NCBI RefSeq assembly: GCF_003633755.1
Contig: NZ_RBIL01000001.1
Span: forward strand, 3,023,426-3,087,425
Direction: 5' to 3'
DNA: 64,000 bases
From: Solirubrobacter pauli
Lineage (GTDB): Bacteria > Actinomycetota > Thermoleophilia > Solirubrobacterales > Solirubrobacteraceae
The position numbers were made by a program, and so were the translations under genes. Under the pieces are notes generated by a model. The model was not told where the DNA came from. It worked only from the letters and a program-made list of their open reading frames with translations, and did no database searches. This document shows, piece after piece, positions 4,531 through 30,978 of the stretch (its first letter is position 1; each line of letters opens with the position of its first letter).

Positions 4531-4550
4531 GTAGCGCTCACCCGAAGACT

Positions 4551-4567
4551 GCAGTACGGCACTACGG
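4551..4567. promoter_or_regulatory. candidate operator shared with 10706-10722
   Basis: GCAGTACGGCACTACGG lies between the LAL regulator and the NRPS gene. It matches GCCGTAGCGCACTACGC, upstream of the small secreted protein at 10791, at 13 of 17 positions. No regulator can be assigned with certainty; the adjacent LuxR proteins are obvious candidates. Confidence 0.3.
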
Positions 4568-4570
4568 TCG

Positions 4571-4618
4571 AGCGGTCGCTGGACCGCTGGAAGGCTCCTG
4601 ACTCCCTCTCCAGGAGCC
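4571..4618 (+). promoter_or_regulatory. two-hairpin leader that buries the NRPS ribosome binding site
   Basis: Two perfect stem-loops sit back to back. The first is AGCGGTC (4571-4577), loop GCTG, GACCGCT (4582-4588). The second is GGCTCCTG (4593-4600), a 10-base loop, CAGGAGCC (4611-4618). The 3' arm of the second contains AGGAG, the only good Shine-Dalgarno sequence, seven bases before the ATG at 4624. When folded, the ribosome binding site would be paired, suggesting control of translation. No known riboswitch class is recognised. Confidence 0.5.
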
Positions 4619-4623
4619 TCCGA

Positions 4624-7600
4624 ATGAGCACACTCGACCTCCCCGACACGCACGCGCCGACCCCTCGACCGCCGCGCGCGACCCTCGTCGACGTCTTCGA
4701 CGCGACCGTGGCCGCCCACGGTGAGCGCCTCGCGCTCGACACGCCCGGCGCGCAGCTGACGTACACGGCGCTCGCCGAGCGCGTGCACGTGGTTGCCGAC
4801 CGTTTGCGCGACGGCGGCGTCGGCCCGGGCGACCGCGTCGGCGTGCGCGTCGCCAGCGGCACCCACGAGCTCTACATCGCGATCCTCGGCGTGCTCGCCG
4901 CCGGCGCGGCCTACGTCCCGGTCGACGCCGACGACCGCGCCGCCCGCGCCGAGCAGATCTTCACCGACGCGGGCGCTTGCGCCGCGGTGGGCGACGGGCT
5001 CGAGCTGCACTGGCGCAATGCCCCGAGTGGCCGTGCCGGACGGCCTGGCCCCGACGACGACGCCTGGATCATCTTCACGTCGGGCTCGACGGGCGCGCCG
5101 AAGGGCGTCGCCGTCAGCCACCGGTCCGCGGTGGCCTTCCTCGACGGCGAGGCGGAGCTGTGGCGGGTGCACCCGGAGGACCGCGTCCTGGCCGGGCTGT
5201 CGGTCGCCTTCGACGCGAGCTGCGAGGAGATGTGGCTCGCCTGGGCCAACGGCGCGGCGCTCGTGCCCGCGCCGCGCGCGCTCGTGCGCTCTGGTGTCGA
5301 GCTCGGCCCGTGGCTGGCGGAGCGCCGCGTGAGCGTCATCTCCACCGTGCCGACGCTCGCGGCGATCTGGGACGACACGGCGCTCGCCTCGGTGCGGCTC
5401 CTGATCCTCGGCGGTGAAGCCTGCCCGGAGTCGCTGGTGCAGCGCTTGGCCGGCGACCGCGAGCTGTGGAACACCTACGGGCCGACGGAGGCCACCGTCG
5501 TCTCCACCGCGACGCGGCTGATGCCGGGTGCGCCGGTCACGATCGGCGAGCCCTTGCGCGGTTGGGAGCTTGCCATCGTCGACGAGCGCGAGCAGCCCGC
5601 CGAGGAGGGCGAGCTGGTGATCGGCGGCGTCGGCCTCGGGCGCTACCTGCGCGCCGACCTCGACGCCGAGCGCTACCGCGCGCTGCCCGTCCTGGGATGG
5701 GAACGCGCCTACCGCACCGGTGACATCGTCCGCCGCACGGACCACGGGCTCGAGTTCGTCGGCCGTCGCGACCACCAGGTCAAGATCGGCGGACGCCGGA
5801 TCGAGTTGGGGGAGATCGACGACGCGCTCAGCGCGGTGCCCGGCGTCCGCGCCGCGGCCACGGTCGTGCAGTCGTCGGCGGCCGGCAACAAGCTGCTCGT
5901 CGGCTACGTCGCCGGAACGCTCACGCCCGAGGCGGTCCGCGCCGACGTCGCCGCGCGCCTGCCGGCGAGCCTCGTGCCGCAGATCGTCGTCCTGGACGAG
6001 CTGCCGCTCGCCACGTCGGGCAAGGTCGACCGCAAGGCGCTGCCGTGGCCGCCGCCCGGCGCGGGCGAGAGCCACGGGCTCACGGCCGCCGAGGAGCGGC
6101 TGGCGGAGCACTGGCGCGAGCAGCTCGGCCCGGTCACAGTTGGTCCCGACAGCGACTTCTTCGCCCTCGGCGGGACTTCGCTGGCCGCCGCCAAGCTCGT
6201 CTCGGTGCTGCGCGTCGAGCACCCGTCCGTGGCCGTCGCGGACGTCTACGAGCAGCGCACGCTGCGCGCGTTCTCGGCCCGGCTCGAGCAGATCGCGGGG
6301 CCCGGGACGGACGCCGTGCCTGAAGTCTCTCTGCGCGGCGCGCGCCGGCTGCAGCTGCTGCAGCTCGTCGGCGTCGTCGTGCTGTTCGCGATCCAGGCCG
6401 TTCCGTGGCTGCTCGGCACGCTCGTCTACGGCAACGTCGTCGACATCGGCACCCCGCACGTCGGCTGGCTGTGGCTGGGCGCGGCGTGGATGCTGCTCGC
6501 GAGCCCGCCCGCCCACGTGGCGCTGCAGTTCGTCTGCACCCGCGTGCTCCTGCGCGGGGTGCAGCCCGGCCGCTACTCGCGCTACTCCGGCTTGGCCGCA
6601 CGGCTGTGGTTCATCGACCGCTTGGCCGAGGTCACCCGTTACGAGCGTCTCGGTGGCACGCCTTGGGCGGCGAAGTACGCCCGCCTGGTCGGCGCCGAGG
6701 TCGGCGACGGCGCGCGCCTCGCGACCGTCCCGCCCGCCGGCGCGCTGCTGCGGATCGGCGCCGGCGCGACCGTCGAAGGCAACGTCGACCTGCGCGGCTG
6801 GTGGATCGACGGCCAGGAGCTCGTGGTCGGCGCGATCGAGGTTGGCCCGCAGGCGCGGATCGGCTCCCGGTCGCTGCTGAACCCGGGCACGGTCGTCGGC
6901 GCGGGTGCCGAGATCGAGCCCGGAACCGTCGTCGAGGGCGAGGTCCCCGCCGGCGAGCGCTGGGGCGGCGCGCCCGGACGCCGGATCGGCGTCGCCGGCG
7001 AGCACTGGCCCGCAGAGCCACCGGCGCCCACACGAGCCGGGCTGTGGCCGTTGGCGTTCGCCGCGAGCCTCGGCCTGGAGCTGACGCTCGGCCTCGCGGC
7101 CTTCGCACCGGCGGTCGGCCTGCTCGCGCTGCTGGGCTCCGACCTGCCGACCCTCGGCAGCTCGACGGGCGAGCTGGCCTTCGAGGTCGCAGTCATCACC
7201 GCGATCTCGGTCCCGCTGACCGCGCTGATCGTCGCCCTCACGTTGCGGCTGGTGTGGCGGCTCGTGCGCCCGGGATGGCACGACGAGCACGGCCCGACCG
7301 GATGGGCGCTGTGGTTCGGCGAGGAGCTCAAGAAGAGCTCGATCACGCTGCTGTTCCCGCTCTACGCGTCGACCTTCACGCGCCCGTGGTACCGCCTGAT
7401 GGGCGTCACGGTCGGCCGCGGGACGGAGCTGTCGGTGTCCACCGGCCTGAACCCGCTCGTCTCGTTCGGCACGCTGAGCCAGGGCACCGACGACATCGGC
7501 TTCTGCACGTCCCGGTCGCGCGACGGCTGGATGCGCGTCGAGCCGATCACCGTCGGCGACCGCACCTTCCTCGGCCCGGGATCGATCCTGCGCGGCGGAA

Positions 7601-8813: not shown

Positions 8814-10525
8814 CCGACTCCACCCTCAAGCGCAACGTGGGCTTCTGGGGCCTGCTGTGGGCCTCGGAAGGCTCGATCATCGGCTCCGGCTGGCTGTTCG
8901 GCGCCCTTGTTGCGGCCACGACCGCCGGTCCCTCCGCCCTGATCGGCTGGGTGCTGGCGTCGGCGATCGTGATCGTCCTCGCGCTGGTGCACGCCGAGCT
9001 GGCGGGTATGTTCCCCGAGAGCGGCGGCACGAGCCGCTTCCCGCACCACGCGTTCGGCAACCTCGCCGGCATGACGTTCGGCTGGGCGTCGTACCTGCAG
9101 GCGGCGGCCACCGCTCCGATCGAGGTGCTCGCCGCGATCCAGTACCTCTCGACCACCGACTGGGGCCACGGGCTCTACCGCTCGAGCGGCACCCTGAGCG
9201 GCACCGGGATCCTGGTGGCCGTCGTCCTGATGGCGTGCTTCGTCGTGCTGAACCTGATCGGCATCCGCTGGCTCACCCGCGCCAACAACACGATCACGGC
9301 GTGGAAGGTCGCGATCCCCGTCCTGACGATCGTCGTGCTGCTCGTCACCCACTTCCACGCGAGCAACTTCACGGCCGGCGGTGGCTTCTTCGTGCACGGC
9401 TCGGCCATCCACTCGATCCTCGTCTCACTGCCCTCCGGTGGGATCGTGTTCGCGCTGCTCGGCTTCGAGCAGGCGACCCAGCTCGGCGGCGAGGCCCGCA
9501 ACCCGGGCCGCGACCTGCCACGTGCGGTGATCCTGTCGATCCTGATCGGCGCGGGCATCTACACGCTGCTGCAGCTCGCGTTCATCGGCTCGCTCGATCC
9601 CAAGCTGCTGCTCACCCACGACTGGACCGCTCTCGGCGCCGGCAGCGCCGACCCGGCGATCGTCGCGCTGAACGCGGGGCCGTTCTACGCCATCGCCTCG
9701 GTGGCCGGCCTCGCCTGGCTCGCGTTCCTGCTGCGGCTGGACGCGGTCGTGTCGCCGTTCGGCAGCGGCCTCATCTACCTCACGACGTCCGCCCGGATCA
9801 GCCACGCGCTGTCCCGGAACGGCTACATCCCGGAGCCGTTCGAGCGCACCCACCGGCGCACGCTCGTGCCGGTCTTCGGCGTGCTGTTCAGCACGGCCGT
9901 CGGCCTGCTGTTCCTGCTCCCGTTCCCGAGCTGGAGCAAGCTCGTCGGGATCGTCACCAGCGCGTCGGTGCTGATGTACGCCTCGGCGCCGCTCGCCCTG
10001 GGCGCGCTGCGCAAGAGCCGCCCGGAGCTGCCCCGCGTGTACCGGCTCCCGGCCGCCCGGGTGCTCGCGCCGATGGCGTTCGTCTGCGCGACCTGGATCA
10101 TCTACTGGTCGGGCTGGCAGACGCTGACCACGCTGATGGTGGCCATGCTCGTCGGCTATGCGCTGATCGCGGCGTCGTACGCCTTCAAGCTCAACCCCGC
10201 GGCAACGCCGGTCGAGTGGCGCGCCGCGGCGTGGATCGCGCCGTACCTGCTCGGCATGCTCGTGATCTCCTACTTCGGCGACTTCGGGCCGGGAGGGATC
10301 ATCGGAGGCATCGGCGTCTTCGCGCATGTCCTCGATCACGGCGGCACCGGTGGCCTCGGCCTGGTCGGAGGGCTGATCGCCTCCGCCGGCTGGAGCCTGG
10401 TGATCTATCACCTGGCCGTCGCGCTGCGCCTGCCGTCCCCGGCCTCGACGCCGGCGACGCACCGCGCGAACGCCGCACGGACGGACAGCCGCCGGGGCTA
10501 CCTGGCGGCGGGAAGTTCCACGTAG
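8810..10525 (+). CDS. APC-family amino acid permease
   Basis: A 571-residue protein with about 12 to 14 hydrophobic segments and the APC-type start (GFWGLLWASEGSIIGSGWLF) followed by a conserved acidic GGTSRFPHHAFG stretch. The ATG at 8810 overlaps the previous stop; a longer in-frame start at 8729 is less likely because it would lie inside the transferase gene. As third member of the coupled NRPS cluster it could import the amino-acid substrate or export product; direction and substrate cannot be read from sequence. The reading frame ends in a short polar tail. Confidence 0.9.
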   Translation: MTDSTLKRNVGFWGLLWASEGSIIGSGWLFGALVAATTAGPSALIGWVLASAIVIVLALVHAELAGMFPESGGTSRFPHHAFGNLAGMTFGWASYLQAAATAPIEVLAAIQYLSTTDWGHGLYRSSGTLSGTGILVAVVLMACFVVLNLIGIRWLTRANNTITAWKVAIPVLTIVVLLVTHFHASNFTAGGGFFVHGSAIHSILVSLPSGGIVFALLGFEQATQLGGEARNPGRDLPRAVILSILIGAGIYTLLQLAFIGSLDPKLLLTHDWTALGAGSADPAIVALNAGPFYAIASVAGLAWLAFLLRLDAVVSPFGSGLIYLTTSARISHALSRNGYIPEPFERTHRRTLVPVFGVLFSTAVGLLFLLPFPSWSKLVGIVTSASVLMYASAPLALGALRKSRPELPRVYRLPAARVLAPMAFVCATWIIYWSGWQTLTTLMVAMLVGYALIAASYAFKLNPAATPVEWRAAAWIAPYLLGMLVISYFGDFGPGGIIGGIGVFAHVLDHGGTGGLGLVGGLIASAGWSLVIYHLAVALRLPSPASTPATHRANAARTDSRRGYLAAGSST

Positions 10526-19065: not shown

Positions 19066-19575
19066 TTAGTCGTGTCCCATCCGGTCGATGCACACGGTGA
19101 TGGCCAGGATCAGCGCGTCGTCCTGCCCCGGGGCGATCTCGATCCCGTAGGTGTCGCGAACGCGCAACCAGCGCTTGGAGACCTCGGCGACCTTGTCGCC
19201 ACCGCGTTCGATCTCGTACTCGTGGTCGACCACGTTGCCCTTCGCCGACAGGTCGTCGCCGCCCGCGACCTCGATCGAGTAGCGGTCGCGGATTCCGATC
19301 AGCGCCTTCTTGACGGTCGCGACGGTCTTGCCGTCGCGCTCGATCGCCATCCGGTCACGGACGCTGAGCTTCTTCTCCTGGATCGTGAGCAGCTCCTCCC
19401 CGGAACGGCCCTCCAGCACGAGCGTCTCGCGCAGGCGCAACGCCTTGCCGTCGACCTTGAACGCCCGCTCGCCGCCGTCGGTCTCGATCCAGAAGTCGTC
19501 ACCGACCGAGAACACCTTCTCACGCATCGTGTAGCGCGTGCCCTCGGGGCCGCGTCGATCACGCAGTCGTCGCAT
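19066..19575 (-). CDS. LURP-one-related family protein
   Basis: A 169-residue protein with the repeating beta-strand pattern of the LURP-one/tubby-like fold (YTMREKVFSVGDDFWI, FKVDGKALRLRETLVL, EKKLSVRDRMAIERDG, ALIGIRDRYSIEVAGG). The ATG at 19575 is chosen over GTG at 19584 because AGGGAG then stands eight bases upstream; with the GTG it would abut the start. Bacterial members are soluble and of unknown function. It converges on the NHL gene and is divergent from the redox operon, its start lying 80 bases from the next gene. Confidence 0.85.
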   Translation of the reverse strand: MRRLRDRRGPEGTRYTMREKVFSVGDDFWIETDGGERAFKVDGKALRLRETLVLEGRSGEELLTIQEKKLSVRDRMAIERDGKTVATVKKALIGIRDRYSIEVAGGDDLSAKGNVVDHEYEIERGGDKVAEVSKRWLRVRDTYGIEIAPGQDDALILAITVCIDRMGHD

Positions 19576-19636
19576 CCTCGTCACTCCCTTCGCCGTGGTG
19601 CGTGCAGGGAGCGTCGCGGACCGGTCGCCGCGTCGG

Positions 19637-19654: not shown

Positions 19655-21118
19655 ATGTCGACGGCGTCCACGGCCGAGATGATCGCCAGGATGGTCACGG
19701 GCACTCGGGACACCTTGGACGTCGTCGTGCTGGGCGCTGGGCCCGCGGGCGTCATCGCGGCGCTGCGCGCCGCTCGCCTGGGTGCGAACACCGCGCTGCT
19801 CTCCGACGGCGCGTTCGGCGGCATGGCGGCCAACGATGGCCCAGTGCCGGTGCGGACGCTCGCGCACGCGGCGCGGCTGATGCGTGAGGCGCAGCAGATG
19901 CCGGACTACGGCGTCCCCACCGCCGGCGGTGGGGTGGACTACCTGAAGCTGCTGGCGCGGGTCCAGGACGTCACCGCGGCGGTGCGCCGCGGGTCGCTGC
20001 TGCGCACCGAGCTCGAGGCGGCCGGGGTCAGCGTGCGCGAGCACAGCGGCGCCGCGCGCTTCGTCGACGGCGGTACGATCGAGCACGACGGCGGACGCCT
20101 GCGGGCCGGCAAGGTGATCGTGTGCACCGGCGGTGCACCGCGCCGGCCGTCGATCCCGGGCATCGAGCTGACCGCCACCCACAGCGACGCGTGGGCGTTG
20201 CGGGAGGTGCCGGAGTCGATGGTGGTACTCGGCACGGGGGCGACCGGCGTCCAGGTCGCGTCCATCTTCAACGCGCTCGGGTGCCGGGTCACGCTGGTCG
20301 ATGCGGGCCCGCGCATCCTCAAGGGCGAGGATGTCGCGGTCTCGCACGGTGTGCGCGCGGGCTTCGAGGCGTCCGGGGTGCAGGTGGCGGTCGACGCCGG
20401 TCGGGTCGAGCGTTTCGAGGCCTGTCCGGCTGGGGTGCGCATGGTGCATGCCGGGAACGCGTTCGCAGCGGCGGTGATCGTCGTGGCTGCCGGGTGGGTC
20501 GCGAACACCCGCGGAACAGCGCTCGAGCATGCCGGCGTCGCACTCGACGAGCGCGGGTTCATCAGAGTCGACGCGCACCTGCGGACCACGGCGCCCGGCG
20601 TCTGGGCGGCCGGCGACGTGACCGGGCGCGGCATGGTCGTGCACGAGGCGGTACGGCAGGGCGTCCTGGCCGCGACCAACGCGGTGCTCGACGCTGACGC
20701 CGTCCTGCCCGAGCAGGTCAGCCCGACGGGAAGCTTCACCGATCCGGAGTACGCGTCGGTCGGCCTGACCGAAGAGCGCGCACGGCGCGCACACGACGTG
20801 CTGGTCGCGACGGTGCCGTTCGACAGCGTTCCCCGCCCGATCATCGACGGCCGGCCCGCGGGCTTCTGCAAGCTGATCGTGGACCGCGTGCACCGCCGCA
20901 TCCTCGGCTGCCACATCGTCGGCGAGCGGGCGGTCGAGCTGGCGCAGGTCGCCGCCACGGCGATCGCCGGAGAGCTCACCGTCGAGCAACTCGCGCGGGT
21001 CCCGTTCTCGTTCCCCACGTACGCCAACGCCCTCGGCAGGGCCGCGATCACGGCGGCCGCCGAACTCGACGGCTCACACATGTGGGCCGTCGACCTCCTA
21101 CACCCCGAGATCGCCTGA
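19655..21118 (+). CDS. FAD-dependent pyridine nucleotide oxidoreductase lacking the redox disulfide
   Basis: A 487-residue protein of the disulfide-reductase fold: FAD-binding VVVLGAGPAGVIAAL (about residue 20), NAD(P)-binding VVLGTGATGVQVASIF (about 190), a second FAD contact GVWAAGDVTG (about 315), and a C-terminal dimerisation domain. In dihydrolipoamide dehydrogenase and mercuric reductase the first domain carries GGTCLNxGCxPSK; here that place reads GGMAANDGPVPVRTL, with no cysteine. The C-terminal HPTxxE motif is replaced by FPTYANAL. It therefore cannot do dithiol chemistry and is more likely an NAD(P)H-dependent reductase of another acceptor. The start ATG at 19655 is chosen because upstream codons are Arg-rich noncoding-like. 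First gene of a tight six-gene operon. Confidence 0.88.
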   Translation: MSTASTAEMIARMVTGTRDTLDVVVLGAGPAGVIAALRAARLGANTALLSDGAFGGMAANDGPVPVRTLAHAARLMREAQQMPDYGVPTAGGGVDYLKLLARVQDVTAAVRRGSLLRTELEAAGVSVREHSGAARFVDGGTIEHDGGRLRAGKVIVCTGGAPRRPSIPGIELTATHSDAWALREVPESMVVLGTGATGVQVASIFNALGCRVTLVDAGPRILKGEDVAVSHGVRAGFEASGVQVAVDAGRVERFEACPAGVRMVHAGNAFAAAVIVVAAGWVANTRGTALEHAGVALDERGFIRVDAHLRTTAPGVWAAGDVTGRGMVVHEAVRQGVLAATNAVLDADAVLPEQVSPTGSFTDPEYASVGLTEERARRAHDVLVATVPFDSVPRPIIDGRPAGFCKLIVDRVHRRILGCHIVGERAVELAQVAATAIAGELTVEQLARVPFSFPTYANALGRAAITAAAELDGSHMWAVDLLHPEIA

Positions 21119-21130
21119 AGGAGACCCACC

Positions 21131-21670
21131 GTGACGACCACCGAAGCCGCCCGCCACGGCATCACCGTCGGCCCGACCAGCGAGTTCAGCCTGTTCTTCC
21201 GCGTGCGGTCGGGCGAGGAGCAGGCGATGCGCGAGGCGATCGAGGAGCTCCAGCGCAGCCCCGGCTACCGGCCGGGCGACTACGAGCTGCCGATCGCGGT
21301 CATCCACGAGGCGCGGTTCGTGCTCTTCGACGACGACACGCGGCTGCTGTTCGCCACGAGCTTCGACGGCACGTGGGACTCCTACATGGAGGACTTCGCG
21401 TCCAAGCCGCTCAAGCTGTTCGACGCGATCTTCCGGCACGTCGAGGGCTACGAGGGCTTGCCCGACCTGGCCGCGGTCAAGGCCTTCATCCTCGGCGCGC
21501 AGCGGAGCGCGTCCGGCTACGCCCGCAACGTCGGTGGCACCGTCAAGGAGATCCGCAAGGCGCAGCGGGTCAACGCCGCCTTCCAGCGCGTGCTCGACGA
21601 CCCGGCGGCCGAGGAGGCGCTGAGCCACCCGGCACTCGCTCCGCTGCTCGAAGAAGCGGCCGACGCCTGA
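21131..21670 (+). CDS. uncharacterised ferredoxin-fold-like protein of the redox operon
   Basis: A 179-residue soluble protein without signal peptide. The segment around residues 55-90 (IHEARFVLFDDDTRLLFATSFDG...SYMEDF) resembles small alpha/beta domains found as partners of, or fused to, DyP-type peroxidases; I recognise the pattern but cannot name a family with certainty. The C-terminal half is helical. It lies 12 bases after the flavoprotein gene (GAAGGAGA ribosome binding site) and its stop overlaps the next start by one base. Its placement before the DUF4331 and DyP genes suggests a role with the peroxidase. Confidence 0.75.
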   Translation: MTTTEAARHGITVGPTSEFSLFFRVRSGEEQAMREAIEELQRSPGYRPGDYELPIAVIHEARFVLFDDDTRLLFATSFDGTWDSYMEDFASKPLKLFDAIFRHVEGYEGLPDLAAVKAFILGAQRSASGYARNVGGTVKEIRKAQRVNAAFQRVLDDPAAEEALSHPALAPLLEEAADA

Positions 21671-22767
21671 TGTCGCACCACATCTCCGGCCCGCGGGCGG
21701 TCGCCGAGCCCATCGCGGACATCACCGACGTCTACGCGTTCCCGAGTCCGGAACGGCCCGGGTCCCTCGTCCTGGTGCTGAACACCCTGCCGTTCGCCGA
21801 GCCGACCGACCGGTTCTCGGACGCGTTGATCTACCGCTTCCGCCTTCGCCGGCTGGCTCGCAACGGCGCCGCGGTGCCGTTCAGCCCCGTCGACGAGCAG
21901 GACTTCACGATCGACTGCGTCTTCGACGGCGAGGGCGACGAGCAGGTCTGCGTGTGCACGTTGCCCGGCGGTGAGACGGTCACCGTCGACGTCAACGACG
22001 AGCGTGGCGCGGCGGGGACCCGGGTGTTCGCGGGCCCGCGCTGGGACCCGTTCATCCTCGACGCGCCGGCGATGCTCAAGACGATCGCCACGGGCGAGCT
22101 CGCGTTCACCGATCCGGGCGCGATCTACCTCGACGGCAAGAACGTGCTCGGCCTGGTCATCGAGCTCGACGCCTCGGAGCTCGGCGACTTCATCGGCGTC
22201 GCCGCCGAGACGCTGACCCGCGGCAAGCTCAACGTGCGGCTCGAGAGCGCGGGCCGGCCCGAGGTGCCGAACATGATGCTCGGACCGACGCAGTTCGATC
22301 AGGTCAACCGCGATCTGGAGATCCGCGACCTCTACAACATGGACGACCAGTTCCATCCGGCGCACGTCTACGAAGGGGCGTATCGCGCGCGGCTGAACGC
22401 GAACCTCGCGTTCTGGGACGGGCTCGACGGCAAGGTCGACTGGCCGCTGGACGAGGACGGCGCGCACCCGTTGACCGAGCTGGTGCTGGCCGACTACCTC
22501 GTGCTCGACCTCACGAAGCCGTACGCGGCGAACGGCTCCTACCTCGAGCCCGAGCTCGCCGCGTTGCGCGGCGAGCAGCACCGGACGTGCGGCGGCCGCG
22601 CGATCAACGACGACGTGATGGACACGATCTTCACGTTGCTCATCACGGGTGGCAACGGCCCCGCGGTGCGTGACGGGGTGGACCGCTCGAGCCGGCCCGC
22701 GAGCGACCGGTTCCCGTACCTCTCGGCGCCCAACCCGGATCCCCCGCGGCCACCCGCACGGCCATGA
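21670..22767 (+). CDS. DUF4331 family protein
   Basis: A 365-residue protein with the DUF4331 hallmarks: an opening SHHISGPRAVAEPIADITDVYAF-type stretch, several strands rich in Asp, and LGRxxxPMxN-like features replaced here by RPEVPNMMLGP (about 195). It has no signal peptide, whereas many family members are secreted. The start overlaps the previous stop by one base and the end overlaps the DyP gene by four. No activity is established for the family; the operon places it among redox enzymes. Confidence 0.85.
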   Translation: MSHHISGPRAVAEPIADITDVYAFPSPERPGSLVLVLNTLPFAEPTDRFSDALIYRFRLRRLARNGAAVPFSPVDEQDFTIDCVFDGEGDEQVCVCTLPGGETVTVDVNDERGAAGTRVFAGPRWDPFILDAPAMLKTIATGELAFTDPGAIYLDGKNVLGLVIELDASELGDFIGVAAETLTRGKLNVRLESAGRPEVPNMMLGPTQFDQVNRDLEIRDLYNMDDQFHPAHVYEGAYRARLNANLAFWDGLDGKVDWPLDEDGAHPLTELVLADYLVLDLTKPYAANGSYLEPELAALRGEQHRTCGGRAINDDVMDTIFTLLITGGNGPAVRDGVDRSSRPASDRFPYLSAPNPDPPRPPARP

Positions 22768-24104
22768 CCGTCGTGCGCGGCACGAGCCTCGAGCTCGGGG
22801 ACATCCAGCGCGGCGTGCTGCAGAGCCGTCCATCGCCGTACGCGGGCACCTACCTGCTGCTGCGCATCCGGGACCGCGACGCGGGCCGCACGCTGATCGA
22901 GCGACTGCTGCCGCACGTGGCGTCCGCGGCGGGGCCGGCGCCCGGCGACGCCTCGCTCTCGGTCGCGTTCACCTACGCGGGCCTGCGCGCGCTCGGGGTC
23001 GGCGAGGACAGCCTGGCGAGCTTCGCCCCGGAGTTCCGCGAAGGCATGGCCGCCCGCGCCGCGCACCTGGGCGACCGGGGAGACAGCGCGCCCGAGCACT
23101 GGGAGGCGCCGCTGGGGACGTCCGCCGTGCACGTGGCGCTGGCCGTCCTCGCCCGTGACGAGCAGCACCTGGACGAGCTGCGCGTCCGGGCCCGCCGGGC
23201 GCACGAGCAGCTGCCCGGCGTCGAGGTCGTCTGGCGCCAGGACTGCTACCAGCTGCCCAACGAGCGGACGTCGTTCGGCTTCAAGGACGGCATCGGGCAA
23301 CCGGCGATCGAAGGCAGCGGCATCCCGTCCACCAATCCGCACGAGCCGCCGATCAAGGCGGGTGAGTTCGTGCTCGGCTACCCGGACGAGAGCGGCGGCT
23401 TCGCGCCGATGCCGACGCCCGAGCTCCTGGGCCGCAACGGCACCTACATGGTCTTCCGCAAGCTGCGGACGCGCGTCGCGGCCTACCGGCAGTACTTGCG
23501 CGCGAAGGCCCGCACGCGCGAGGAAGAGGCGGCGCTGGGCGCGAAGATCGTCGGCCGCTGGCCGAGCGGCGCGCCGCTGAGCCTGGCGCCCGATCGCGAC
23601 GATCCCGCGCTCGGCCAGGACGACGCCCGCAACAACGCCTTCGGCTACGGCGACGACCTGCGCGGCTTCAAGTGCCCGGCCGGCGCGCACGCCCGCCGCG
23701 CGAACCCGCGGGACGCCCTGGACGGCGAAGGGCTCGTCGACGTCCGGCTGCACCGCATGATCCGGCGCGGGACGAGCTACGGCCCGATGCTCGGAGCCGG
23801 CGAGCTGGAGGACGACGGCATCGAGCGCGGGATCGTCTTCGTCTTCCTCGGCACCCGCATCGACCGTCAGTTCGAGTTCGTCAAGACGCAGTGGCTCAAC
23901 GACGGCGTGTTCATCGGCGCGCCGGAGGAGCGCGACCCGCTCACCGGCCCCAACCAGGGCTGGGAGCGCTTCACCATCCCGCACCGCCCGATCCGCCGCC
24001 GCCTCGACGCGCTGCCGCCGTTCGTCGTCACGCGCGGCGGCGAGTACTGCTTCGTCCCCGGCCTGCGAGCACTCCACTGGCTCGCGGAAGGAGAACGCGC
24101 GTGA
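22764..24104 (+). CDS. DyP-type heme peroxidase
   Basis: A 446-residue heme peroxidase. The diagnostic GxxDG motif appears as FGFKDGIGQP (about residue 173) with its catalytic Asp; the proximal heme histidine is in GAHARRANPRD (about 307); TYMVFRKLRT and FVFLGTRIDRQFEFVKTQWLND match conserved heme-pocket strands. There is no Tat or Sec signal and no encapsulin-targeting tail is evident, so it is likely cytoplasmic. It uses hydrogen peroxide to oxidise dyes, phenols or other donors; the natural substrate may be defined by the neighbours. ATG overlaps the previous stop, and the next GTG overlaps its stop. Confidence 0.95.
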   Translation: MTVVRGTSLELGDIQRGVLQSRPSPYAGTYLLLRIRDRDAGRTLIERLLPHVASAAGPAPGDASLSVAFTYAGLRALGVGEDSLASFAPEFREGMAARAAHLGDRGDSAPEHWEAPLGTSAVHVALAVLARDEQHLDELRVRARRAHEQLPGVEVVWRQDCYQLPNERTSFGFKDGIGQPAIEGSGIPSTNPHEPPIKAGEFVLGYPDESGGFAPMPTPELLGRNGTYMVFRKLRTRVAAYRQYLRAKARTREEEAALGAKIVGRWPSGAPLSLAPDRDDPALGQDDARNNAFGYGDDLRGFKCPAGAHARRANPRDALDGEGLVDVRLHRMIRRGTSYGPMLGAGELEDDGIERGIVFVFLGTRIDRQFEFVKTQWLNDGVFIGAPEERDPLTGPNQGWERFTIPHRPIRRRLDALPPFVVTRGGEYCFVPGLRALHWLAEGERA

Positions 24105-24961
24105 GCGTCACCGACGAGACCGATCGCTGGAAGGTGCTCGACTTCGGGCCACCGCCGGCCGACTTCACGGAGCCCGACAACCCGGTGCTGCTCGAGCATC
24201 GCTCCGAGGGCCGCGTCGCGGTCGTCACGCTCAACGCGCCCCCGGACAACGCGATCACGACGGCGATGGGCGCCAGGTTGACCGAGGTGCTCGAGACGAT
24301 CGCCGTCACGACCACGGTGCGCGCCGTGGTGATCACCGGCGCCGGCGAGCGGGCCTTCTCGGTCGGCAGCGACCTGCGCCAGCGCAAGAACATGACGAAG
24401 GAGGACTGGCTGCGCCAGCGCCAGGACTTCGACCGCACGCTGTACACGCTGCGCCAGCTGCGCAAGCCGATCTTCGCCGCGGTCAACGGCATCGCGTACG
24501 GAGGTGGGTCCGAGATCGCCCAGAGCTGCGACTTCATCGTCGCTGCCGAGGGCGCGACCTTCGGCCAGCCCGAGGCGATGATCGGCCTGGCGGCGGGCGG
24601 CGGCTCGCCCGTGTTCCTTCCCCGGCTGCTGCCACCCGGCCGGGCGTTGCAGATGCTCATGACCGGCCAGCCGCTGAGCGCCGCCGAGGCGTATCGGCTC
24701 GGCATGGTCAACGAGCTCCATCCGCAGGGCGAGCTGATGACGGCGGCGCTGCGCATCGCCGACCAGATCGCCTCGAACTCCCCAACCGCCGTCCAGGCCG
24801 TCAAGCGCGCCGTGCGCATGGGCGAGAGCCAGCCGATCGAGCAGGCCGTGGCGATCATGATGGAGGCCCACTGGCGCTCGGCCGTCCACCCCGACCGCGC
24901 CGAGGGCATCGGCGCCTTCAACGACAACCGCGATCCGCACTTCGCGGACGCCGACTACTGA
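24101..24961 (+). CDS. enoyl-CoA hydratase/isomerase (crotonase family)
   Basis: A 286-residue crotonase. GTG at 24101 is the start: it has an excellent ribosome binding site (GGAAGGAGA) and overlaps the DyP stop. Both catalytic glutamates of true hydratases are present, in GGGSEIAQSCD (about 147) and FGQPEAMIGL (about 168); the oxyanion-hole segments FSVGSDL and AYGGGSE are also intact. It carries about 35 extra N-terminal residues before the core. An acyl-CoA hydration or cleavage step within a peroxidase/molybdoenzyme operon is unusual and suggests breakdown of an unsaturated or aromatic side chain; that is inference. Confidence 0.93.
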   Translation: MSVTDETDRWKVLDFGPPPADFTEPDNPVLLEHRSEGRVAVVTLNAPPDNAITTAMGARLTEVLETIAVTTTVRAVVITGAGERAFSVGSDLRQRKNMTKEDWLRQRQDFDRTLYTLRQLRKPIFAAVNGIAYGGGSEIAQSCDFIVAAEGATFGQPEAMIGLAAGGGSPVFLPRLLPPGRALQMLMTGQPLSAAEAYRLGMVNELHPQGELMTAALRIADQIASNSPTAVQAVKRAVRMGESQPIEQAVAIMMEAHWRSAVHPDRAEGIGAFNDNRDPHFADADY

Positions 24962-24971
24962 TCGAGGCGAG

Positions 24972-26027
24972 ATGACCGCGAGCGAGCGTGTCAGGGCGGC
25001 CCGCGGCGCCCTGACGATGGTGCAGGCCGAGCCGTTCAACGCCGAGGCACCGCCGGAGGCGTTGACCACCGACATCACCCCTACCGAGCTGCACTACGTG
25101 CGCAGCAACTTCGCGCTCCCGGAGCACGACGGGCTGCTGCACGTCGGCGGGACCGTGGCCAACCCGCTGACCCTGACCCTCGACGACCTGCGTGCGCTGC
25201 CCGCGGTCACCCGCGCGGTGACGCTCGAGTGCGCCGGCAACGGCCGGTTGGGGCAGACACCGCTGCCCGAGGGCGAGCCATGGGGCCGCTACGCGGTCTC
25301 GACCGCCCGCTGGACCGGCGCGCGGCTGTGCGAGGTGCTCGACCGGGCCGGGTGCAGCGCCGACGGCGTGGACGTCCGCTTCCAGGGCGCGGACCATGGT
25401 CCCTACCACCAGCACGAGGACCTGCGCTTCGTCCGCTCGTTGGATCTCGTCCACGCCGCCGACCCGTCCGCCGAGATCCTGATCGCCTACGACATGAACG
25501 GCGAGCCGCTCGACGCCGACCACGGCGCGCCCTTCCGCCTGATCGTGCCGCACTGGTACGGCGTCGCCTCGGTCAAGTGGCTCGAGCGCATCGACGTCAT
25601 CACCACCGACTACGCGGGTGAGTTCCAGGTCGGCCACTACATGTACGAATGGCCTGACCGGCCACACGAGCCGGTCACCGCCATGCGCGTGCGCGCCCGC
25701 ATCACCGACCCCGCCCCCGGCGCCGAGCTGCCCGCGGGCACATGCACGATCCGCGGCAAGGCCTGGTCGGGCACCGGGCCGGTCACCAAGGTGGAGCTGA
25801 GCTTCACCGGCGCCGGCGACTGGCACCCGGCACGCCTGGACATCCGCCAAGAGCCGTACGCGTGGCAGGACTGGTCCTTCGAGTGGACCGTCAGCCGGCC
25901 GGGCCGGTACAGCCTCCGCGCCCGCGCCACCGATGCGGCGGGCAACGTCCAGTCCGAGGTCCCGCCGTGGAACCGGCTCGGCTACGGCAACAACGCCGTC
26001 GAGGTGCAGCACGTCGACATCCGCTGA
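24972..26027 (+). CDS. sulfite oxidase-like molybdopterin enzyme, cytoplasmic
   Basis: A 351-residue protein of the sulfite oxidase family. The molybdenum-ligating cysteine is in VTLECAGNGR (about residue 83); an HWYGVASVKWLERI segment (about 195) and a C-terminal Ig-like dimerisation domain (about 235-350) follow. There is no Tat signal, no heme domain and no membrane anchor, so it should be a soluble cytoplasmic molybdoenzyme; many such homologues do not oxidise sulfite. It follows the crotonase gene after 10 bases (GAGGCGAG as ribosome binding site) and closes the redox operon. It ends 10 bases from the convergent sensor kinase. Confidence 0.92.
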   Translation: MTASERVRAARGALTMVQAEPFNAEAPPEALTTDITPTELHYVRSNFALPEHDGLLHVGGTVANPLTLTLDDLRALPAVTRAVTLECAGNGRLGQTPLPEGEPWGRYAVSTARWTGARLCEVLDRAGCSADGVDVRFQGADHGPYHQHEDLRFVRSLDLVHAADPSAEILIAYDMNGEPLDADHGAPFRLIVPHWYGVASVKWLERIDVITTDYAGEFQVGHYMYEWPDRPHEPVTAMRVRARITDPAPGAELPAGTCTIRGKAWSGTGPVTKVELSFTGAGDWHPARLDIRQEPYAWQDWSFEWTVSRPGRYSLRARATDAAGNVQSEVPPWNRLGYGNNAVEVQHVDIR

Positions 26028-26037
26028 CGGCAGCCGC

Positions 26038-27825
26038 TCAGTGGAGCGGGACCGTGCAGGTGACCCGGGTGCCGTGCGTGGGCTCGGAGTCGATGACGAG
26101 CGACCCTCCGATCGCCTCGATCCGGTCCCGCATGTTGCGCAGCCCACGTCCATCGGCCTCGCCGGTGGTGAATCCGGCTCCGTCGTCGCGGATCTCGCAG
26201 GACAACCACGTTCGTGACTGCGTGAGCGTGATCCAGACGCCCGTGGCCCCGTGCGCGTGCTTGAGCGCGTTCTGCATCGCCTCGACGCAGCTGAAGTAGA
26301 CGGCGCTCTCGATCTCGATCGGGTGGCGCGTGACGCCGTGCGCGCGCACGTGGATCGGCACGGGAGCGTGCGCGGCCAGCGATCGCAGCGCCTCGCTGAT
26401 GCCTCGGTCGGTCAGCAGCGACGGGTAGACGCCGTGGGCGACGGCGCGAAGCTCGTCCAGCGCGGCCTCGGCCTCGCTCCCGAGCTCACGGATCGCTTGC
26501 ACGCCCACAGCCGGGTCGGTCCGGAGCAGATCCTCGGCCACGCCGAGCCGGATCCGCAGTGCGATCAGCCGCTGTTGCGCGCCGTCGTGCAAGTCCCGCT
26601 CGATCCGGACCCGCTCGAGGTCGGCGGCTTCGGCGATCCGGCGGCGAGAGTCCTGCAGCTCGGTCGTGGCGGCGCCGAGCGCGGACGTCAGCCGCTCGCG
26701 GTGCAACGCGGCGACCAGCACGCGCAACACGCCGTCCAACAGCTCGCGGTCGTCGAGCAGCGCTCGATCGTGGATCAGCGTCAGCCCTTCGACGCTGTCC
26801 GCGGTCGTCGCCTGGTCGGGTGCGAGCGGCGGCAGCGTCTCGCCCACGAGCAGCTGAGCCGTCGGGTCGCGCATCGCCCGGGACGTCGCGTCGCGTACCG
26901 CGCGGCGGTCGGTGCTGGAGTGGAGCGCGATCTCCAGCCCGGAAAGCGCCTGTGCGAGCAACGTCCGCCGCCAGATGAGGCCGCCCAAGAAGCCGGCGCA
27001 CACCAGGACGATGCAGAACGTCCACAGCGAGGAGAGCGCGATCACCGTGTCGGCCGCCACGCCGAGCTGGCGCGCGGTGATGTGCGCGTAGTGGCTCAGG
27101 GCGAGCAGCGTCGCCGCGACGAACGCCGGTCCCATGGCGCGCCGTTGGAGCGGTGATGCGGCACGCCAACGGCGGAACATCGACCACAGGAGCCCGAGCC
27201 ACAGCGCTTCGACCAGCCACTCGCGCACGTAGATGACGTCGATCAGCCAGCCGGGCTGCGCATCGAGGAGGAACACCGCGTTCTCCGGGCATTCGGCGGT
27301 GCACGTTCCCCACAACGTCTTGGCTGGGAACGCCTGCACGAGCGGCGCCGTGCCCAGGAACAGCACCACGAGCAGCACGATCGTGAACGTGAGCAGGGCG
27401 CGGTCGAAGCGCCCGGCGATCCGGCCGTCCGGGAACGCCAGCAGCAGATAGACCACGCAGGGGAAGATCAGCCACGTCGACAACCGCCCGATCGTGAAGA
27501 GCACGCTCACCGAGGACTCCGTCAGGGCGGTCAGCGACCAGGCGTAGCCGATGCCGAGCAGGGCGAACCCGAAGGAGGCGTTGATCGGTGCTCGCAGCGC
27601 GTAGAGCCCGACGGCGATCGGCACGCCGACGATCAACAACTCGAGCAGGCCTCTCCCGAAGGCGGCATCGCCAGGAGCGCTGGCGGTGGCCATGGCCACC
27701 GCCGCTGCGCACAGCAGCGCGCCGGACACCGCCAACGGCACGGACGAGCCCCGCGAGGCCACGCCGGCGCGAGCTCGGAACACGCGTTGTTCGACTTCGC
27801 CGACGACCATCGCTGATCGGGCCAT
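26038..27825 (-). CDS. NarL-type sensor histidine kinase with N-terminal membrane domain
   Basis: A 595-residue kinase. About nine hydrophobic segments fill residues 25-290; a GAF-like region (about 300-395) precedes the HisKA_3 dimerisation domain with the phospho-accepting histidine in IERDLHDGAQQR (about 411). The ATPase domain shows its N-box (CVEAMQNALKHA, about 515) and G-boxes (DDGAGF, GRGLRNMRDRIEA). No response regulator adjoins it; the nearest transcription factor is the MalT-like gene beyond the amphi-Trp gene. A GGGGTGA dyad lies just upstream of its start. The ligand is unknown. Confidence 0.93.
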   Translation of the reverse strand: MARSAMVVGEVEQRVFRARAGVASRGSSVPLAVSGALLCAAAVAMATASAPGDAAFGRGLLELLIVGVPIAVGLYALRAPINASFGFALLGIGYAWSLTALTESSVSVLFTIGRLSTWLIFPCVVYLLLAFPDGRIAGRFDRALLTFTIVLLVVLFLGTAPLVQAFPAKTLWGTCTAECPENAVFLLDAQPGWLIDVIYVREWLVEALWLGLLWSMFRRWRAASPLQRRAMGPAFVAATLLALSHYAHITARQLGVAADTVIALSSLWTFCIVLVCAGFLGGLIWRRTLLAQALSGLEIALHSSTDRRAVRDATSRAMRDPTAQLLVGETLPPLAPDQATTADSVEGLTLIHDRALLDDRELLDGVLRVLVAALHRERLTSALGAATTELQDSRRRIAEAADLERVRIERDLHDGAQQRLIALRIRLGVAEDLLRTDPAVGVQAIRELGSEAEAALDELRAVAHGVYPSLLTDRGISEALRSLAAHAPVPIHVRAHGVTRHPIEIESAVYFSCVEAMQNALKHAHGATGVWITLTQSRTWLSCEIRDDGAGFTTGEADGRGLRNMRDRIEAIGGSLVIDSEPTHGTRVTCTVPLH

Positions 27826-28236: not shown

Positions 28237-30978
28237 GTGCGGTGCAATCCGCGTGTGCGCGAATCGGTGCATGCATCCCGTCGCCGGCTGCGCCATCCCT
28301 GCCTCGCCACGCAGCTGGTCGTGCCGCGGCTCCCCGCGGGGATGGTCGACCGGCCGAGGCTGACCGCACGGCTGGAACGCGGACGAGCGGAACCGGTCAC
28401 GCTGGTCTGCGCCCCCGCCGGCAGCGGCAAGACATCGCTGGTGGCGAGCACCGTGCCCGCGTGGCCCGAGCGCGTGGCGTGGGTCTCCTTGGAGCCATCC
28501 GACAACGCACCTGAGCGCTTCTGGAACATCGTGCTGGTCGCACTCGAGCGGGCCGGCGTGGCCCCGCCCGGGTCAGCGCTGGCGGAGCTCGCCGCCCCCT
28601 TGGACCGCTCGGAAGGGGTGTTCGCGCCGCTGCTGGTCAACGCGTTGGCCGAGCTGCCGGAACCGGTGGCGCTCGTGTTCGACGACCTCCAGTACATCCG
28701 CTCACGCCCGTGCCTCGCGCAGCTGTCCTCCCTGCTCGTGCATCTGCCCGGGGCGGTTCGCCTGGTGCTGATCGGGCGCTCCGAGCCGCCGCTGCCACTG
28801 CACCGCCTTCGCCTCAGTGGGCGGCTGGTGGAGATCCGCGGCCGCGACCTCGCGTTCACGGAGGACGAGGCGGCGGCGCTGCTTCAGGCGCATGGGCTCG
28901 ACCTGGGTCCGAAGCTGATCCGCGCGCTGCGCCTGCGCACGGAAGGGTGGTCGGCGGGCCTGCGGTTGGCGGCGCTCGGCCTGCGAGGGCACGCGGACCC
29001 CGAGGCGTTCGTGACGCAGTTCGCCGGAGACGATCGAACGGTGGCGGACTACCTGCTGGCCGAGGTCCTCGACCAGCAGCCTCCGCCGGTGCGGTCGTTC
29101 CTGCTGCGCACCTGCCTGCTCGACACCGTCTGCGGCGAGCTGGCCGACGCGCTCACCGGCGCCGGCGACGGCGCTGACACGCTCGCCGCGCTCGAGCGGT
29201 CGAACGCCTTCATCACCCCGTGCGACGGTCGCGGCGAGTGGTACCGCTTCCACACGCTGTTCGCGCGTGTCCTGCGAACCCGCGCGCACGCCGTGCTCGG
29301 CGACGAGGTGCGCACCTTGCGACGACGCGCCGCCGACTGGTACGCCGCCCACGCGCGCCCCGCCGAGGCGCTCAAGCACGCGGTGCTCGCGGAGGCGTGG
29401 GAAGTGGCCGCCGCGATCGTGGCGACCAACTGGTTCGAGCTGTACACGAGTCCGTACGCTGCCGAGGTCATCGCGTCGATCGCGGCGGTACCGGAGCCGT
29501 GGCGCAGCCAGGATCCCGTGCTGGCCGGCGCACTGGCGTGCGCGGCCCTCGACCGCGGCGACGGCACCGATGCGCACCGCCACCTCGCCGATGCTGAACG
29601 TGCGGCCGCGTCACTTCCCGACGATCACCGCGAGCGCTACCGGGCGACGCTCGCGCTGGCTCGCCTCGCGACCGCCCGGATGGAAGGTCGCTACGAGACC
29701 GCGCTGGAAGCGGCTGACGAGCTGTTGGCCGAGCCGCCCGGCCGCGGACGCGAGCCGAGCCGGGAGCGGCGGGCGCTGGTACGGGCGAGGCTCGGTGAGA
29801 CGGCGGCATGGGCGGAGCGCTTCGACCGCGCCGAGGAGCAGCTGTCACGCGCCATCGCCGAAGCCGACGGCTCCGGCCTCGACCAGCTCGCGATCTCCGC
29901 GAGAGGCGACCTGGCGTACGCGCGCGTGCTCGCCGGCGGCCCCGCGAGTGACCTGCGCTGCGCCGACGACGCGCTCGCGCTGGCCGCTCGCCGCGGCTGG
30001 GTCAACGCCAGCGCCACGGCGTCCGCGCACATCGCGCTGGCCGTCGCCGCCCTGGACGCGTGCCGAGACGAGCCATGCCGTGCCCACCTGGACAACGCGA
30101 CCGTGGCGATCGCCGTCGCCCGGCGTCCGCATCTGGACTTCGCGCTCGCGCACACACGCGCACGGCTGGCGGGCACGCGCGGCCATCCGGTCGAAGGGCT
30201 CCGCGAGCTCGAGGACTGGGAAGCCCGTCACACCGGAGGCTCGACCCTCGTGTCAGAGCGCGTCGGCGCAAGCTGCCTGCGAGCCCGGCTGCACCTCCTC
30301 GCCGGACGGTTGGACGACGCCCGAGCGGCGATCGACCCCGTCCTTCACCACACCACGCCGATCGTGCAGGTCGCCGAAGCATGCCTGCAGCTGGCGGAAG
30401 GGCGCCCGGCACGGGCGCTCGAGACCTTCGGTGCACACCATCAGCACGACGTCCGCCCACTCCCGGTCATCGAGCGCGGGATCCTCGAGGCGGTCGCTCA
30501 CCGGCAGCTCAACGATGCGGGAGCCGCCCGGGTGGCGCTGGACCAGGCGCTCACGCTCTCGGCCCGAACGGGGTGTTGCCGGCCGTTCGTCGACTTCGCC
30601 GGCGTTCACCTGGAGGGACTGCTCCGTGATCAGATCCGCGCGCCGACGCCCCACCACAAGCACGTCATCGGGCTGCTCGGCCTGCTCGCGGGCAACGGGC
30701 GCGACACCACGCCCGTCGCTCCCGTGCTCGAGCCCTTGAGCGACCGGGAGCAGGTGGTCCTGCGCTACCTCCCGACCAACCTGTCGAACCGCGAGATCGC
30801 CGGCGAGCTGTTCCTGACGACCAACACCGTCAAGACGCATCTGCGAAGCATCTACCGCAAGCTGAACGTCGGGCACCGCGGCGAGGCGGTCGCCCGCGCC
30901 CGCGAGCTGCATCTGATCGGCGGCAGCTCGCACCCCGGCCCCCGCGAGCGGTCGGACCGCGTCACCCCGATCGGATGA
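28237..30978 (+). CDS. MalT-like LuxR-family ATPase regulator
   Basis: A 913-residue regulator of the MalT type. After LATQLVVPRLPAGMVDRPRL comes Walker A (CAPAGSGKTSL, about residue 64) and a Walker B-like ALVFDDLQYI (about 148), then a winged-helix region, a long TPR-like helical array, and a C-terminal LuxR HTH (LSDREQVVLRYLPTNLSNREIAGEL...NTVKTHLRSIYRKL, about 835-885). The start is uncertain: GTG at 28237 has GGGTGAG upstream, while GTG at 28267 would place the conserved LATQL motif at the usual distance. The stop falls inside a 21-base repeat also found upstream. Ligand unknown. Confidence 0.92.
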   Translation: MRCNPRVRESVHASRRRLRHPCLATQLVVPRLPAGMVDRPRLTARLERGRAEPVTLVCAPAGSGKTSLVASTVPAWPERVAWVSLEPSDNAPERFWNIVLVALERAGVAPPGSALAELAAPLDRSEGVFAPLLVNALAELPEPVALVFDDLQYIRSRPCLAQLSSLLVHLPGAVRLVLIGRSEPPLPLHRLRLSGRLVEIRGRDLAFTEDEAAALLQAHGLDLGPKLIRALRLRTEGWSAGLRLAALGLRGHADPEAFVTQFAGDDRTVADYLLAEVLDQQPPPVRSFLLRTCLLDTVCGELADALTGAGDGADTLAALERSNAFITPCDGRGEWYRFHTLFARVLRTRAHAVLGDEVRTLRRRAADWYAAHARPAEALKHAVLAEAWEVAAAIVATNWFELYTSPYAAEVIASIAAVPEPWRSQDPVLAGALACAALDRGDGTDAHRHLADAERAAASLPDDHRERYRATLALARLATARMEGRYETALEAADELLAEPPGRGREPSRERRALVRARLGETAAWAERFDRAEEQLSRAIAEADGSGLDQLAISARGDLAYARVLAGGPASDLRCADDALALAARRGWVNASATASAHIALAVAALDACRDEPCRAHLDNATVAIAVARRPHLDFALAHTRARLAGTRGHPVEGLRELEDWEARHTGGSTLVSERVGASCLRARLHLLAGRLDDARAAIDPVLHHTTPIVQVAEACLQLAEGRPARALETFGAHHQHDVRPLPVIERGILEAVAHRQLNDAGAARVALDQALTLSARTGCCRPFVDFAGVHLEGLLRDQIRAPTPHHKHVIGLLGLLAGNGRDTTPVAPVLEPLSDREQVVLRYLPTNLSNREIAGELFLTTNTVKTHLRSIYRKLNVGHRGEAVARARELHLIGGSSHPGPRERSDRVTPIG

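What the first reader, a model, noticed from the sequence alone, without database searches (positions are those of the whole stretch)
19655..26027. Six-gene translationally coupled redox operon with no obvious known pathway
A cysteine-less flavin reductase, a small ferredoxin-fold-like protein, DUF4331, a DyP peroxidase, a crotonase with both catalytic glutamates and a cytoplasmic sulfite-oxidase-like molybdoenzyme follow each other with gaps of 12 and 10 bases or overlaps of 1 to 4 bases. Such tight coupling implies one process. Heme peroxidase plus acyl-CoA hydratase plus molybdoenzyme is not a combination I know from a described pathway; attack on an aromatic or unsaturated compound is one guess.
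Basis: partly seen in the sequence, partly recalled or inferred. Interest (0 to 1): 0.72.

Follow-up and report, generated by a model that had tools for sequence, protein, structure and literature searches.

The report
Travelling peroxidase operon, function unknown
Six neighbouring genes in a soil bacterium form a real operon, and five of them (a small barrel protein, a protein of unknown function, a heme peroxidase, a crotonase and a molybdenum enzyme) occur together in the same order in about thirty other bacteria and seem to move between them as a block, although no searched paper describes what the set does.

Summary
Six same-strand genes (19655-26027) have gaps of +12, -1, -4, -4 and +10 and lie between a divergent and a convergent gene. 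The refutation test fails: with DUF4331 as anchor, DABB-DUF4331-DyP-crotonase-SUOX recurs in fixed order and strand in 30 fully compared loci (window included), mostly actinobacteria plus MAGs filed as Chloroflexi and Acidobacteria. In 396 drawn phylum genomes the crotonase subfamily occurs in 3, always in this operon. The five genes' distances agree (r 0.73-0.84) and the operon tree mixes taxa, so it travels as a block. Catalytic residues are invariant. The 'small protein' is an ABM/dimeric alpha+beta-barrel (DABB) protein. A hierarchy appears: a DABB-DyP pair; a core with DUF4331; then either crotonase+SUOX (type I) or a TPR protein plus varied redox enzymes (type II), never both. The cysteine-less flavoprotein is a facultative extra. 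I found no paper describing the set. Best guess: a cytoplasmic, peroxide-driven oxidation module for an aromatic or unsaturated small molecule; substrate and reaction order are unproven. The molybdoenzyme keeps most, not all, sulfite-oxidase pocket residues, so it is probably not a plain sulfite oxidase.

The parts
19655..21118 (+). FLAV: FAD/NAD(P)H reductase of the pyridine nucleotide-disulfide oxidoreductase fold without active-site cysteines; facultative sixth gene
   Evidence: Pfam Pyr_redox_2 + Pyr_redox_dim; motif GGMAANDGPVPVRTL in place of the CxxxxC site, shared with L036, L076, L081-L084
21131..21670 (+). DABB protein (ABM/dimeric alpha+beta barrel fold, residues about 13-135, with a helical tail); no Pfam family
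   Evidence: AlphaFold2 pLDDT 85; Foldseek E 1.5e-5 and VIA Z 9.2 to WhiE-ORFI 9lmn; conserved R62, Y85, D88, G106
21670..22767 (+). DUF4331 protein, 365 aa, no known function, mostly beta-sandwich plus helical C-terminal part
   Evidence: PF14224 E 2.5e-23; AlphaFold2 pLDDT 92; no significant PDB fold match
22764..24104 (+). DyP peroxidase, class V (former class C) type, with complete GFKDG motif and proximal His309
   Evidence: TIGR01413 above cut-off; best PDB match 8re3/8re2 at E 7e-122, matching DrDyP described in PMC10820274; conserved D175, H309, R331, R334
24101..24961 (+). Crotonase (enoyl-CoA hydratase/isomerase fold) of an operon-specific subfamily
   Evidence: ECH_1 E 2e-54; E138 and E158 invariant; 3 of 396 drawn genomes, always in the operon
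24972..26027 (+). SUOX: sulfite-oxidase-family molybdoenzyme without heme domain; no signal peptide evident
   Evidence: Oxidored_molyb E 1.6e-48; Cys87, R44, R92, W104, Y223 invariant, positions matching chicken K200 and R450 not kept

Best explanation
Shown: a co-inherited, horizontally transferred operon built around a DABB-DyP pair with a DUF4331 protein, completed in type I by a crotonase and a heme-free sulfite-oxidase-family molybdoenzyme; in this genome a Cys-less NAD(P)H flavoprotein has joined at the 5' end. Inferred mechanism: a cytoplasmic module for a hydrophobic aromatic or unsaturated small molecule. The DABB protein (perhaps with DUF4331 as scaffold) holds the substrate or its unstable intermediate; DyP oxidises or cleaves it with H2O2; the crotonase acts on a CoA thioester of a product; the molybdoenzyme and, where present, the flavoprotein move two electrons to or from the pathway and, lacking a heme partner, may pass them to O2 and so supply H2O2 to DyP. 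Substrate, order of steps and the H2O2 source are not shown.
For: Fixed order and orientation; correlated distances and mixed-taxon tree; the crotonase and close SUOX subfamilies occur only in the operon in a random draw; all catalytic residues intact. Small-molecule context in related loci: DUF4331 fused to a Polyketide_cyc2 domain in L033; nearby EthD, carboxymuconolactone-decarboxylase-like, acetoacetate-decarboxylase-like, SDR, nitroreductase, aldehyde dehydrogenase, alpha/beta hydrolase, P450 and molybdenum hydroxylase genes. The DABB model's nearest structures include aromatic-polyketide ABM, cyclase and decarboxylase proteins. Class V DyPs have the highest reported efficiency on anthraquinones (PMC8197335). 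Two separate Cys-less flavoprotein lineages have joined the module.
Against: No substrate is identified. The DABB fold does not predict chemistry: rhamnose mutarotases and heme-degrading MhuD are also among its matches. The closest solved DyP is inactive at neutral pH (PMC10820274), though it carries M190 where this protein has the usual Gly. No CoA ligase, ring-cleavage enzyme or transporter was seen to recur consistently beside type I operons, so a full catabolic route is not encoded there. H2O2 supply by SUOX or FLAV is speculation.
Confidence: 0.4

Rival explanations
1. Stress-detoxification module: DyP removes peroxides, SUOX removes sulfite or a similar reactive sulfur species, FLAV regenerates reductant; the crotonase removes a reactive unsaturated acyl-CoA.
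For: Heme peroxidase plus sulfite-oxidase-family enzyme with R44, R92, W104 and Y223 kept; a sensor histidine kinase of the same cluster lies near the operon in the window, L041 and L118.
Against: SUOX lacks the positions matching chicken K200 and R450; a general stress system should not be this rare (2-3 of 396 genomes); an invariant crotonase is unexplained.
Confidence: 0.2
2. Tailoring module for a polyketide-like or oxylipin-like secondary metabolite: the DABB protein acts as ABM/cyclase-type helper and DyP as oxidant.
For: Nearest DABB structures belong to aromatic polyketide pathways; DUF4331-Polyketide_cyc2 fusion; P450 or hydrolases beside related DABB-DyP pairs.
Against: No polyketide synthase or lipoxygenase was recognised beside the operon, though most flanking genes were not annotated; flanks differ from genome to genome.
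Confidence: 0.2
3. Metal- or heme-linked module: DUF4331 works in metal or heme handling and DyP consumes the product, as proposed for EfeB-type DyPs.
For: NicO/HupE-type transporters near DUF4331 in rhizobia, hemA copies in L033, an iron-dependent repressor and ABC-3 transporter next to a DABB-DyP pair in L137.
Against: No gene cluster of this kind recurs beside type I operons; crotonase and SUOX are unexplained.
Confidence: 0.15
4. Chance adjacency of unrelated redox genes.
For: None found.
Against: Order conserved in 30 fully compared loci, correlated divergence, and 31 of 32 DUF4331 relatives of 58% identity or more next to the crotonase.
Confidence: 0.01

Closest known systems
Class V (former C) DyP peroxidases, e.g. 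Deinococcus radiodurans DrDyP (8re2/8re3, PMC10820274)
   Same: Full-length similarity (phmmer E 7e-122), catalytic Asp, proximal His and Arg
   Different: GXXDG motif intact (Gly where DrDyP has M190); sits in a five-gene operon with DABB and DUF4331; the text of that paper does not use the word operon
DyP operons efeUOB and encapsulin-DyP
   Same: A DyP gene in an operon
   Different: No iron-transport gene in the six-gene operon; class V rather than EfeB type; no encapsulin search was run
Sulfite oxidase / sulfite dehydrogenase (SorA, SorT, plant and animal SO)
   Same: Oxidored_molyb + Mo-co_dimer, Mo-ligand Cys87, R44, R92, W104, Y223
   Different: Far below NCBIfam cut-offs (190.9 against 600 bits for SorA), no heme domain or cytochrome partner in the operon, two anion-pocket positions changed
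ABM/DABB proteins of aromatic polyketide pathways (WhiE-ORFI 9lmn, TcmF2, Abx(+)O, ActVA-Orf6)
   Same: Fold: Z 9.2 to 9lmn over 113 residues
   Different: 17% identity, own sequence family, no polyketide synthase recognised nearby
MerA / dihydrolipoyl dehydrogenase / Si-specific transhydrogenase
   Same: Two-dinucleotide-binding plus dimerisation domain architecture
   Different: No redox cysteines and no His-Glu pair; below the cut-off of every family listed

Membership tests
Class V DyP peroxidase | GXXDG distal motif with catalytic Asp | tested here: met
   G172-F-K-D175-G176, D in 30 of 30
Class V DyP peroxidase | Proximal His and distal Arg | tested here: met
   H309, R331 and R334 invariant; alignment to 8re3
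Class V DyP peroxidase | Peroxidase activity with bound heme | not testable with these tools
   needs purified protein
EfeUOB iron-uptake operon | efeU and efeO genes beside the DyP | tested here: not met
   Pfam of the six operon proteins
Encapsulin-cargo DyP system | Encapsulin shell gene beside the DyP | not tested
   no encapsulin search was run; none of the six operon genes is one
Sulfite oxidase | Mo-ligand cysteine and Mo-co dimerisation domain | tested here: met
   C87 in 30 of 30; PF00174 and PF03404
Sulfite oxidase | Complete anion pocket (chicken R138, R190, K200, W204, Y322, R450) | tested here: not met
   R44, R92, W104, Y223 kept; K200 position is T/V/E/A/I; R450 position is L/I with an invariant Arg one residue earlier. 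Roles of the chicken residues are from general knowledge
SorA sulfite dehydrogenase (NF052245) | NCBIfam equivalog cut-off of 600 bits | tested here: not met
   190.9 bits
Enoyl-CoA hydratase / crotonase superfamily | Crotonase fold with two catalytic glutamates | tested here: met
   ECH_1 E 2e-54; E138, E158 in 30 of 30
Named enoyl-CoA hydratases (EchA19, PaaF, DpgD and others) | NCBIfam cut-off scores | tested here: not met
   best EchA19 at 209.8 against 400
Disulfide oxidoreductase (MerA, LPD, GR) | CxxxxC and C-terminal His-Glu | tested here: not met
   GGMAANDGPVPVRTL; FPTYANA in place of HPHPTMSE
ABM / dimeric alpha+beta barrel fold | Ferredoxin-like alpha+beta fold | tested here: met
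ABM / dimeric alpha+beta barrel fold | Dimer and monooxygenase or cyclase activity | not testable with these tools
   monomer model only
DUF4331 (PF14224) | Pfam gathering score | tested here: met
   83.5 against 27 bits

The most novel reading that the evidence does not exclude
The operon encodes an undescribed oxidative pathway in which a class V DyP works as part of a complex with a DABB protein and DUF4331 on a defined metabolite, coupled to CoA chemistry by the crotonase and to a new sulfite-oxidase-family activity. It would give DUF4331 and cytoplasmic class V DyPs a physiological role and show that one core (DABB-DyP-DUF4331) has been paired with alternative redox partners across phyla.
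Probability: 0.3. Interest if true: 0.78.

Novelty: new variant of a known kind. Interest (0 to 1): 0.52.

Why it matters
The physiological substrates of DyP peroxidases remain unclear (PMC10820274, PMC8197335), and DUF4331 appears in no paper of the held library. A conserved block linking both to a crotonase and a molybdoenzyme gives five defined partners and many culturable hosts in which the question can be tested by deletion and metabolite comparison. The nested layout (DABB-DyP pair, then DUF4331, then crotonase+SUOX or TPR, never both) is a natural experiment showing which parts form the core.

Tried and rejected
Fold search for DUF4331: no Foldseek hit at E 0.001 or better; VIA rows are antibody domains at Z 6, which I read as generic beta-sandwich similarity; a hit to the ethylbenzene dehydrogenase gamma subunit (2ivf_C, probability 0.30, TM 0.18) was not taken as evidence. 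Profile searches of DUF4331 and the DABB protein against PDB sequences: only chance hits. Pfam on 45 DABB members: weak hits to oligogalacturonate lyase and ABM only. An apparent merger of the DABB and DUF4331 clusters in single-linkage clustering was taken as a clustering artefact: the fused DUF4331 protein examined carries a Polyketide_cyc2 domain, not a DABB domain. Flanking genes of type I operons: no companion recurs consistently. Literature searches for the combination returned nothing.

Full report
OBSERVATION. Six genes run on the + strand from 19655 to 26027 with gaps of +12, -1, -4, -4 and +10. The left neighbour is a divergent LOR-family gene and the right neighbour a convergent histidine kinase, so the directon is exactly these six genes. 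Pfam and NCBIfam confirm the families; the 179-aa protein has no family match.

CONSERVATION. The only search anchor was DUF4331, so neighbours were not selected for. Among 32 fetched relatives with at least 58% identity (window and a duplicate locus left out), 32 have DyP and the DABB protein on the same strand within 3.5 kb, 31 the crotonase and 30 SUOX. Thirty loci, including the window, have all five genes suitable for comparison; their order is always DABB-DUF4331-DyP-crotonase-SUOX with short gaps. Hosts include Kribbella, Nocardioides, Terrabacter, Leifsonia, Arthrobacter, Microbacterium, Jiangella, Occultella, Actinomycetospora, Paractinoplanes, a Streptomyces, solirubrobacters, and MAGs filed as Chloroflexi and Acidobacteria. 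The non-actinobacterial type I cases rest on short MAG contigs, where mis-binning is possible.

RANDOM DRAW. In 396 genomes drawn across the phylum, DUF4331 of this clade occurs in 2, the crotonase subfamily in 3, and SUOX at 70% or more identity in the same 3, followed by a gap down to 49%. All three crotonases sit in the operon; one contig is cut off inside DyP. So close homologues are not scattered: they are rare and together.

CO-INHERITANCE AND TRANSFER. Pairwise distances of the five proteins correlate at 0.73-0.84. The concatenated tree separates the window from the other members of its family and splits Kribbella, Occultella and Nocardioides; several internal nodes are weak. Within the family the full-length gene is present in 5 of 146 genomes. 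Block transfer is the simplest reading.

NESTED DESIGN. DUF4331 relatives at 38-58% identity (26 loci: Streptomyces, rhizobia, Anaerolineales, Ktedonobacteraceae and others) have DyP in 24, a DABB protein in 24 and a TPR protein in 24, but no crotonase. Type I and type II are therefore mutually exclusive completions of one core. Type II loci add varied enzymes: an acetoacetate-decarboxylase-like protein, nitroreductase, SDR, NDH-2-like flavoproteins, NicO transporter, Polyketide_cyc2 fusion, EthD, CMD, aldehyde dehydrogenase, alpha/beta hydrolase, and molybdenum hydroxylase with cytochrome c. DABB-DyP pairs also exist without DUF4331, including a second one in this genome. More distant DUF4331 genes of Bacteroidetes lack DyP but keep a TPR neighbour.

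THE FLAVOPROTEIN. It lacks both redox cysteines and the His-Glu pair. The same subfamily (GGMAANDGPVPVRTL) sits upstream of the DABB gene in L036 and at the end of type II loci in mesorhizobia (about 55% identity); a different Cys-less subfamily (GGVVTTTGGAPTKAL and near variants) sits in Streptomyces, Anaerolineales and Ktedonobacteraceae loci. It is a facultative but recurrent partner.

ACTIVE SITES. DyP: GFKDG, H309, R331, R334. Crotonase: E138, E158. SUOX: C87, R44, R92, W104, Y223. All are invariant in 30 of 30 except Lys in GFKDG (27 of 30); the SUOX positions matching chicken K200 and R450 are not kept. The enzymes look active, and SUOX probably has an altered anion pocket.

FOLDS. The DABB model (pLDDT 85) matches the ABM/dimeric alpha+beta barrel fold, best WhiE-ORFI (Z 9.2, rmsd 2.9, 113 residues), but also sugar mutarotases and, lower down, heme-degrading MhuD, so the chemistry is open. 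The DUF4331 model (pLDDT 92) has no trustworthy PDB match.

INTERPRETATION. Shown: operon structure, conservation, co-inheritance, nested architecture, intact active sites. Inferred: a cytoplasmic H2O2-dependent oxidation module for an aromatic or unsaturated small molecule, with the crotonase working on a CoA product and SUOX/FLAV handling electrons and perhaps making H2O2. The searches of the held literature found no description of the set. Class V DyPs are the most efficient DyPs on anthraquinones and natural substrates remain open (PMC8197335), which fits but does not prove the guess.

Noticed in passing
L138 (G000:C1:1463000-1477000), 1872-6773 +: Second class V DyP in the same genome, preceded by two DABB-like genes, a 483-aa protein with no Pfam or PDB match and an alpha/beta hydrolase.
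   Followed up: partly
window 19069-19584 -: LOR (LURP-one-related) family gene divergent from the operon, sharing a 70-base intergenic region with it.
   Followed up: no
window 26038-27825 - and 28237-30978 +: A histidine kinase and a large LuxR-type ATPase regulator lie just downstream; relatives of the kinase lie near the operon in L041 and L118, of the LuxR protein in L049 and L052. Possible regulators.
   Followed up: partly
L033:11992-13497 +: DUF4331 fused to a Polyketide_cyc2 (SRPBCC) domain, beside hemA copies and a molybdenum hydroxylase, on a Sinorhizobium plasmid.
   Followed up: partly
L090-L115: In Bacteroidetes the DUF4331 gene is often called as two adjacent ORFs, followed by a TPR lipoprotein and often a TonB-receptor-like gene.
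   Followed up: no
L073: Rhodococcus sp. ARC_M6 carries a rearranged, apparently decayed DABB-DUF4331-DyP locus with inverted DyP pieces.
   Followed up: no
L031:3244-3885 and 9879-10520: Two identical copies of the DABB gene about 6.6 kb apart on a Streptomyces linear plasmid.
   Followed up: no
L137:4676-8531 -: A DABB-DABB-DyP set followed by a P450-like gene, next to an iron-dependent repressor and an ABC-3 metal transporter, in a genome of the same family.
   Followed up: partly
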